From Clostridiaceae bacterium (GTDB taxonomy: Bacteria; Bacillota; Clostridia; DSM-8532), in assembly GCA_012521105.1 (NCBI GenBank), contig JAAYNA010000076.1, positions 1 through 35,102 of the forward strand: a stretch of DNA of 35,102 bases, in the 5' to 3' direction. Of the stretch, positions 27,922 to 32,678 are shown in pieces. Position numbers and translations under genes: made by a program. The stretch's first letter is position 1. Every line of letters starts with the position of its first letter. The notes below the pieces were generated by a model, which was not told the origin of the DNA, did no database searches, and saw nothing but the letters and a program-made list of their open reading frames with translations.

Positions 27922-31032
<3,111 letters not shown>

Positions 31033-31188: not shown

Positions 31189-31222
31189 AAAGGGTGTACG
31201 GTACCACCGTACACCCTTTTAA
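31189..31222 (+). terminator. Strong terminator of the small transcript
   Basis: A perfect 14-bp stem AAAGGGTGTACGGT / ACCGTACACCCTTT with a three-base ACC loop, ending in TTTT. On the minus strand the stem is followed by T and GGC, so it acts mainly on the plus strand. Confidence 0.9.
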
Positions 31223-31313
31223 AGTCTGTAAGTACATTGAGAAATCTCCTGCCCCTATTTGTCACCATATTCTATTAATTCGTATCGCGTATCATTTATT
31301 ATGCTATTAAATT

Positions 31314-31508
31314 CGTAGCATCTTCTTTCCGGCATCTGTGCTACGTTTGTCCGAGCCTGTAGATTCAGCTCAAGCAAGCCGAAACTCGCAAAAATGCTTT
31401 TGAATCCTGCAGGCAGCATTTTTGCCCAGACAGTCGACTTGCTTATCCTCGCTCGGAGTCACATGTCCAGCCTGCACTCCGCGATGCTGTCTTCAAGGAG
31501 ATGCTACG
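31314..31508 (+). other. Long nested inverted-repeat element, candidate structured RNA or MITE relic
   Basis: 195 bp with no ORF and distinctly higher GC than its flanks. Its two ends pair over 14 bp (CGTAGCATCTTCTT at 31314-31327 with AAGGAGATGCTACG at 31495-31508). Inside, in strict nested order, are GGCATC/GATGCT (31331/31483), GTGC/GCAC (31338/31474), TCCGAGC/GCTCGGA (31350/31451), AAGCAAG/CTTGCTT (31372/31438) and an 11-bp stem GCAAAAATGCT/AGCATTTTTGC (31388/31415). The two non-Watson-Crick pairs are G-U if read from the plus strand and A-C from the minus strand. An outer TGCTAT/ATAGCA pair (31302/31523) extends it. No promoter or terminator of its own is evident. 31223-31313 shows nothing further. 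Confidence 0.55.
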
Positions 31509-31559
31509 TATGATTCAGCTCTATAGCAATTATTAAATTTAAACAACTTCGCGTTATTT

Positions 31560-32678
31560 TTATTGTGTTTCCTCAGACTGATAATTTGCTGTTTTTTCTT
31601 TTGGATTTTTGCTTATTCGGTTTTTTATTTCGGCCCAAACCCATATAAACAACGGAATGATAACCTGAAAAGGTATTGCATAATAATCATATATGTTCAA
31701 AACCCAGTTTTCCATCTCAACTGTATTTTCATAGAGTATAAAGGCAAGATATGTCATGACCAGACCTGTCTGTATTGTGATAAATCTATAATCGGTTAGC
31801 TTGAATATATAAGATATCCCCTTACAGGTAACAAACAGGCATACACTTGCTTTGATAAAGCATGTAATGGCATATGAAACCGAGATTGTACCTTCCATCC
31901 TCTGAAGGAAATTGCCAAGCTGTATCCGGCTAAAAGAAGAATATGAAGGAAAATAGAAATCGTCCTTGACAGGGCCCAGGATAAATGTGTTCACCAGTGT
32001 TAGTGTAATGAGAACAATGCTTGCTGTAATTACTCCTGTCAGAAAAACCTTATATGCTGAACCCCGTTTTTTCAGAGAATAAAAGATTCCCAAAAAAATA
32101 ACCGATTCACCAAAAGGAAAAGTAAATGCAGAAAAGCCGGCTCTGGCGATTTTGGGAAGACCATGGGCAAAATAAGGTTTGATATAGTTAAAATTCATCT
32201 GACTTATCGACAGCACTTCCATGAGTATTAGTATTAAAATTACCACAGGCAATGCATATGTACTGATCCTGCCTATAACTTCGATACCCAATCGCGCTGC
32301 CACTATAATGATTATACTGAAACTAAGCATAATAACTATCAGTGGTGTTTCGGTCAGTGATGTTATCTTCACAAATTCCCCGAAGTTTCTCAGCACCAGT
32401 GCTCCAACATGCAACGAATACCAGGTGTAAATTGCGATAATAACTGCACCAAACACTTTTCCAAACAATAATTCGGCTATTTCAGGCAAATCCCGCCCCT
32501 CGTGCAGGACCTGTATTCTTGCATAAATTAATGCAAAGGGAATGAAATAAATTAACCCTAAAATTCCTGCTATCCAGTTATCATTTTTAACATCAAGGCC
32601 AGATCCAATTACAATGTTACTGCCTAATAAAAATAGAACTGCAATGCATATTGCTTCTTTATCGGTAATTTTAACCAT
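31560..32678 (-). CDS. Germinant receptor B subunit (GerAB/GerKB family permease)
   Basis: A 372-residue integral membrane protein of the spore germination (APC-like) permease family, with about ten membrane segments from MVKITDKEAICIAVLFLLGS onward. The pattern LLGSNIVIGSG in segment 1, FPFGESVIFLG and a late FIWVWAEIKNR end is typical of GerAB/GerKB. It sits in the spore inner membrane and helps bind germinants. ATG follows AGGAAGG, 11 bp after the small D-like gene. It is the last gene of the ger operon; no clear terminator follows. Confidence 0.92.
   Translation of the reverse strand: MVKITDKEAICIAVLFLLGSNIVIGSGLDVKNDNWIAGILGLIYFIPFALIYARIQVLHEGRDLPEIAELLFGKVFGAVIIAIYTWYSLHVGALVLRNFGEFVKITSLTETPLIVIMLSFSIIIIVAARLGIEVIGRISTYALPVVILILILMEVLSISQMNFNYIKPYFAHGLPKIARAGFSAFTFPFGESVIFLGIFYSLKKRGSAYKVFLTGVITASIVLITLTLVNTFILGPVKDDFYFPSYSSFSRIQLGNFLQRMEGTISVSYAITCFIKASVCLFVTCKGISYIFKLTDYRFITIQTGLVMTYLAFILYENTVEMENWVLNIYDYYAIPFQVIIPLFIWVWAEIKNRISKNPKEKTANYQSEETQ

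What the first reader, a model, noticed from the sequence alone, without database searches (positions are those of the whole stretch)
31314..31508. Six-helix nested structure of about 195 nt between lacZ and gerB
The two halves of this non-coding stretch pair through six helices of 14, 6, 4, 7, 7 and 11 bp in strict nested order. The two wobbles (31324/31498 and 31331/31488) are G-U only if the RNA is read from the plus strand. I do not recognise any known RNA class. It could be a new structured RNA, the RNA-like end of an IS200/IS605 type element, or a MITE.
Basis: seen in the sequence. Interest (0 to 1): 0.75.

Follow-up and report, generated by a model that had tools for sequence, protein, structure and literature searches.

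The report
Mobile palindromic repeat with conserved core
The folded stretch is one copy of an undescribed family of small, mobile, hairpin-shaped DNA repeats scattered between the genes of several groups of Clostridia; its inner core has kept its shape and its loop letters while almost every paired letter changed, which is unusual for such elements.

Summary
In detail: 31314-31508 folds into a nested imperfect hairpin (z -4.45 on +, -2.99 on -; no shuffle as good), with helices close to those listed. It is not a single-locus RNA. It is one copy of a dispersed palindromic repeat. Covariance model R1 counted about 10 copies in its own genome, 54 in a same-genus genome, and 14-48 in five others of the family. 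Twenty-five genomes of the family have none. The core also occurs in another order: 30 copies in one genome, 16 in another. There the stems differ in sequence but the internal-loop letters are kept. Covariation is very strong: 175 cells changed on both sides against 58 +/- 6 in shuffles. Wobble-type mispairs are strand-symmetric (21 G-U to 21 A-C), copies are intergenic in both orientations, and presence/absence is seen at matching loci. In one genome copies carry terminal inverted repeats and exact 8-9 bp target duplications. I therefore read it as a non-autonomous, MITE-like DNA element, not a strand-specific RNA. No transposase partner was found; Y1 (IS200/REP) and UPF0236 partners were tested and not met. 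Unusual point: the core is conserved across orders while the ends are exchanged between lineages.

The parts
31302..31528 (.). largest extent of the palindromic element seen in this copy (outermost pair TGCTAT/ATAGCA)
   Evidence: sequence; flanks shared with copy C184 of the same genome over query 1-70 and 169-231 of 31300-31530
31314..31327 (+). outer arm, left (14 bp with 31495-31508, one wobble)
   Evidence: fold
31495..31508 (+). outer arm, right
   Evidence: fold
31330..31356 (+). left middle arm: helices 31330-31336, 31343-31346, 31350-31356
   Evidence: fold
31451..31489 (+). right middle arm: partners 31451-31457, 31463-31466, 31483-31489
   Evidence: fold
31364..31371 (+). conserved internal-loop motif TTCAGCTC (left side)
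   Evidence: conserved across orders in alignment A4
31443..31457 (+). conserved internal-loop motif TTATCCTCGCTCGGA (right side)
   Evidence: conserved across orders in A4; in this copy GCTCGGA also pairs with TCCGAGC 31350-31356
31372..31382 (+). core helix, left side (with 31434-31444, C-A mismatch at 31379/31437)
   Evidence: 8 of 9 pairs of this helix covary in A4
31434..31444 (+). core helix, right side
31382..31389 (+). second conserved internal-loop motif AAACTCGC
   Evidence: A4
31424..31434 (+). second conserved internal-loop motif GCCCAGACAGT (family consensus GCTCAAACAGT)
   Evidence: A4
31388..31425 (+). apical hairpin (11 bp 31388-31398/31415-31425); loop letters and stem length vary between genomes
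31339..31493 (+). match to covariance model R1 (118.4 bits; this copy was in the training alignment)

Best explanation
It is a copy of a non-autonomous, MITE-like palindromic DNA element of Clostridia. Shown: multi-copy, dispersed, intergenic, patchy between close relatives, present in some species and absent in others at matching gene gaps, deeply covarying helices, and in one genome terminal inverted repeats with exact 8-9 bp target duplications. Inferred: copies move when a transposase encoded elsewhere acts on the ends, and different lineages have acquired different ends. Inferred and weaker: the imperfect-hairpin core is kept because a protein recognises it as folded DNA (cruciform or single strand during replication) with its unpaired loop letters, either for the element's spread or for its maintenance.
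For: Copies: own genome 10 with R1, G001 54, G021 48, G018 42, G020 25, G019 15, G022 14; 25 other genomes of the family zero. Another order: G435 30, G422 16. Intergenic context of 75 sites in the family: 31 co-directional, 21 opposite, 19 divergent, 4 convergent. Presence/absence in both directions between G001 and the own genome (L172/L231). G435: 12-bp end motif at 112 sites against 2 control; exact 8-9 bp flanking repeats in 6 of 13 copies scored, shuffles mean 0.55, maximum 4 of 2000. Covariation 23 of 31 pairs; 175 cells against 58.3 +/- 5.8 shuffled. Mispairs 21 G-U: 21 A-C in the wide alignment and 23: 26 in a strand-neutral alignment, against 18: 0 in tRNA stems of the same DNA.
Against: No autonomous element or transposase with matching ends was found. 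Target duplications are shown only in G435; at the window copy the flanks (ATTTATTA / ATTATTAA) are not a clean duplication. In an ordinary MITE the ends are conserved and the interior drifts; here it is the reverse across genera. In G001 all 13 co-directional copies point the same way as the genes, which a purely neutral DNA element would not predict. A narrower alignment gave 34 G-U to 16 A-C in the core.
Confidence: 0.68

Rival explanations
1. A structured RNA family (cis-element or sRNA) that happens to be amplified: the transcript folds into the hairpin and its conserved internal loops bind a protein or ligand.
For: Compensatory changes in 23 of 31 pairs with loop letters kept across two orders. 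Slightly better folding z-scores on + in most copies tested. In G001 13 of 13 co-directional copies share the gene direction. Core mispairs 34 G-U: 16 A-C in the narrow alignment.
Against: 21: 21 mispairs in the wide alignment, which was even fitted to + strand pairing. Both orientations equally frequent outside G001 (18 same: 21 opposite in the family; 6: 9 in the other order). In the G001 copies printed, promoter-like sequences (read by eye) lie between element and gene, so the element would not be in that gene's leader. No Rfam family matches.
Confidence: 0.17
2. A REP/BIME or IS200/IS605-derived element mobilised by a Y1 (RAYT/TnpA) transposase as single-stranded DNA.
For: Hairpin-bearing ends, tandem arrays in G001, intergenic location, one Y1 gene in G000 and in G018.
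Against: No Y1 transposase in G001, G019, G020, G022, which carry 54, 15, 25 and 14 copies; no element copy in the loci around the Y1 genes found. The 8-9 bp duplications in G435 do not fit Y1 insertion, which makes none (established knowledge).
Confidence: 0.06
3. The core alone is the mobile unit and inserts into the centre of other small palindromes (hairpin-targeting), so that unrelated outer palindromes carry the same core.
For: Same core inside different outer palindromes in each lineage. G435 and G018 also have the small outer palindromes without a core. Nesting with a second palindromic family occurs in both orders, module 1 in 2 and 2 in 1.
Against: Empty small palindromes can equally be internal deletion products: 129-bp intermediates exist, and one 34-bp unit has its own 8-bp duplication. 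No core-only insertion junction was captured.
Confidence: 0.09

Closest known systems
bcr1 and related stem-loop repeats of the Bacillus cereus group (PMC2267715 and references in it)
   Same: About 150-170 bp, dispersed, predicted common secondary structure, reported mobile-element traits.
   Different: Different bacteria and no shared sequence was tested. Described as specific to one species group, whereas the core here spans two orders with stems rewritten.
MITEs (bacterial miniature inverted-repeat elements in general)
   Same: Short, non-coding, terminal inverted repeats and target duplications (shown in G435), intergenic, patchy.
   Different: Ends differ between lineages while the interior is conserved; no parent transposase known.
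REP/BIME repeats with RAYT (PMC3733652)
   Same: Palindromic, intergenic, can be tandem.
   Different: REPs are 20-40 bp with tagged ends; this element is about 200 bp and the Y1 partner is missing in several high-copy genomes.
Double-hairpin elements of mitochondrial genomes (PMC4478555)
   Same: Mobile palindromes.
   Different: Unrelated genomes, smaller; resemblance of form only, not tested.

Membership tests
MITE | short non-coding element in many dispersed copies | tested here: met
MITE | terminal inverted repeats conserved among copies of one genome | tested here: met
   G435: GGGYGCATTTTM 112 sites against 2 control; g3 genomes GAACTATTGTACAATAACG
MITE | target-site duplication | tested here: met
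   G435 only, 8-9 bp exact in 6 of 13 copies scored; not shown for the window copy
MITE | ends match an autonomous transposon | tested here: inconclusive
   Y1 and UPF0236 tested without match; no pair of ends in the listed G435 sites clearly flanks a transposase; other transposase families not searched
MITE | presence/absence at matching loci | tested here: met
   L172 and L231, both directions
Structured RNA | covarying helices | tested here: met
Structured RNA | strand-specific wobble excess | tested here: not met
   21 G-U: 21 A-C, tRNA control 18: 0; narrow alignment 34: 16
Structured RNA | match to a described family (Rfam 15) | tested here: not met
Structured RNA | transcription | not testable with these tools
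   no RNA-seq available
REP/BIME or IS200/IS605 derivative | Y1 transposase in the genome | tested here: not met
   absent in G001, G019, G020, G022
bcr1 | sequence relation to bcr1 | not tested
   no bcr1 sequence was compared

The most novel reading that the evidence does not exclude
A conserved, folded core (about 130-160 nt with two fixed internal loops) is a selfish or functional module in its own right, recognised as folded nucleic acid by an unknown protein, and it repeatedly changes vehicles by acquiring different transposon ends in different Clostridia.
Probability: 0.3. Interest if true: 0.8.

Novelty: new variant of a known kind. Interest (0 to 1): 0.52.

Why it matters
Small bacterial palindromic repeats are usually genus-bound and known by their ends. 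Here the inner fold is shared across orders through full compensatory change while the ends are swapped. That points to an unknown factor that reads the fold. The family is abundant (up to 54 copies per genome) and has no Rfam entry. It can mislead RNA-discovery pipelines, because palindromic DNA repeats can covary like an RNA; the G-U to A-C balance is a cheap way to tell the two apart.

Tried and rejected
Rfam at gathering and permissive thresholds, on the window and on distant copies: nothing over the element. Phage and plasmid collections and viral contigs: no match. Y1 transposase and UPF0236/ISLre2 as partners: not supported. Search for an ORF-bearing relative through the G435 end motif: only 34, 129 and 233-245 bp units. 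IS110 bridge RNA was considered because of the two internal loops and rejected: the loops here are fixed across genomes, and G435 copies have inverted ends and duplications. Genes beside low-copy elements (argS, trmD, prfA, DHH phosphatase, GTP cyclohydrolase) share nothing. Literature search by sequence and by concept: no description found.

Full report
OBSERVATION. The stretch between lacZ (27949-31032, +, GH2 beta-galactosidase) and a spore germination permease gene (31560-32678, -) folds as described. RNA folding of 31290-31540 gives -75.7 kcal/mol on + (z -4.45) and -76.2 on - (z -2.99), with 0 of 200 shuffles as good; as DNA z -3.70. The helices are 14, 7, 4, 7, 7 and 11 bp. The two wobbles exist, but the same copy also has a C-A mismatch (31379/31437) that would be a wobble on the other strand, so the strand argument fails already here.

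IT IS A REPEAT FAMILY. The own genome (G000, 3.38 Mb, the window is contig C96) holds diverged and partial relatives. A same-genus genome, G001, has dozens, including tandem arrays with about 225 bp spacing. A covariance model of the core (R1, 160 positions, 31 pairs) counts 10, 54, 48, 42, 25, 15 and 14 copies in G000, G001, G021, G018, G020, G019 and G022, and none in 25 other genomes of the family, two of them in the same genus. A class-wide sample found one hit outside the family (G397). The order of that genome has 7 of 58 genomes with matches, G435 with 30 and G422 with 16.

ANATOMY. Consensus of the core: AGAGC-helix-TTCAGCTCGGG-helix(GCAA..)-AAACTCGC-apical hairpin-GCTCAAACAGT-helix(..TTGC)-TTATCCTCGCTCGGA-helix-GCTCT. 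Internal-loop columns vary less than paired columns (0.52 against 0.69 bits of entropy; apical loop 1.27). In the other order the stems have other letters, the apical hairpin shrinks to CTCGCTTCGCTC in G422, and the loops are kept. In G022 an extra pair of hairpins is inserted in the left arm without destroying the rest.

COVARIATION. In alignment A4 (36 sequences, both orders) 93.5% of cells pair, 23 of 31 pairs have a change on both sides, and 175 cells are changed on both sides against 58.3 +/- 5.8 in shuffles; slid controls pair 31-43%. A4 was fitted to the model, but the MAFFT alignment A2 gives the same direction (55 against 17.5 +/- 3.6).

RNA OR DNA. If one transcript were selected, G-U should greatly exceed A-C in the helices. 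In tRNA stems from the same DNA it is 18: 0 (12 tRNAs). Here it is 21: 21 in A4, 23: 26 in a strand-neutral arm-to-arm alignment and 20: 20 in the outer arms, but 34: 16 in the core of A2. The balance speaks for DNA-level symmetry, with some room for a weak + bias. Orientation to genes: outside G001 it is balanced (18: 21 in the family; 6: 9 in the other order). In G001 it is 13: 0 with the genes, with promoter-like sequences (read by eye) between element and gene. I cannot explain the G001 bias. In the family, convergent gaps are avoided (4 convergent, 19 divergent; background gaps 28 and 18); the window copy is one of the four convergent ones. In the other order this is not seen (4 convergent, 3 divergent).

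MOBILITY. At matching gene neighbourhoods of G001 and the own genome, each has a copy where the other has none (L172 and L231); flanks are too diverged to read exact junctions. In G435 the copies start GGG(C/T)GCATTTT and end with its complement. Exact flanking repeats of 8-9 bp are seen in 6 of 13 copies scored (for example GGATTTTTT, TACATATAG, ATACCCACC); shuffled pairings give 0.55 on average, mostly true pairs kept by chance, and at most 4. The end motif occurs at 112 sites against 2 in control; besides full units of 233-245 bp there are 129-bp deletion forms and 34-bp units made of one end hairpin closed by the other end's last bases, one of them with an 8-bp duplication.

PARTNER. Y1 transposases are absent from several high-copy genomes, the UPF0236 gene of G435 lacks these ends, and neighbours of low-copy elements are housekeeping genes. 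The mobiliser is unknown.

THE ODD POINT. Ends are lineage-specific: GGGCGCATTTTC in G435, GAACTATTGTACAATAACG in g3, GATATCGTGCAATGC in G001, GCTAGGTTNATTAGGT in G422, TTCGTAGCATCTTC in the window's subfamily. The core is common. In ordinary MITEs the reverse holds. Either the core is recognised by something, or the family is old and ends have been replaced several times; these are not exclusive.

VERDICT. Mobile palindromic DNA element, confidence 0.68 for the reading as stated; the role of the core is inference. Nothing in Rfam or the papers searched describes it. New variant of a known kind.

Noticed in passing
L112-L142 (G018-G020), L039/L253/L257/L266 (own genome): A second palindromic family (arms AAACACCCGAACCAGGACCCGC / GCGGGTGGTTCGGGTGTTTT, inner GGTCTCCATATCCCGGGT) nests with this one in both orders: module 1 inside 2 and 2 inside 1; a third (TTAACGGGTCGAGGCATTGCTGCCGCGTTCC) sits in its right arm.
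   Followed up: partly
L099, L108, L096, L097 (G001): Tandem arrays of the element, about 225 bp apart, with partial ends of neighbouring units flanking nearly every G001 copy.
   Followed up: partly
L315-L343 (G435): Many 34-bp palindromes GGGCGCATTTTATTTTTATGAAGAAAATGCGCCC that equal one end of the full element; one has its own 8-bp duplication.
   Followed up: partly
L148-L151 (G022): Copies carry an extra 80-nt double hairpin (GGCGTTTTTAACGC.. and TAGTGCATTTTGCAAAGCAAAAGCACTA) inside the left arm.
   Followed up: no
L228, L231, L039 (own genome): Another repeat with GGGGACGGTTCTT(TTG) near copies, resembling REPs seen in other bacteria (from memory, not tested).
   Followed up: no
window 31190-31222: GC-rich hairpin AAGGGTGTACGGTACCACCGTACACCCTTTT after lacZ, a likely terminator.
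   Followed up: no
L273:1166-1315 (-): Rfam match to TwoAYGGAY RNA (47.8 bits, above gathering) 190 nt from the G115 copy, not overlapping it.
   Followed up: no
G001 copies, L167-L186: All 13 co-directional copies point with the genes and lie just upstream of promoter-like sequences; unexplained.
   Followed up: partly
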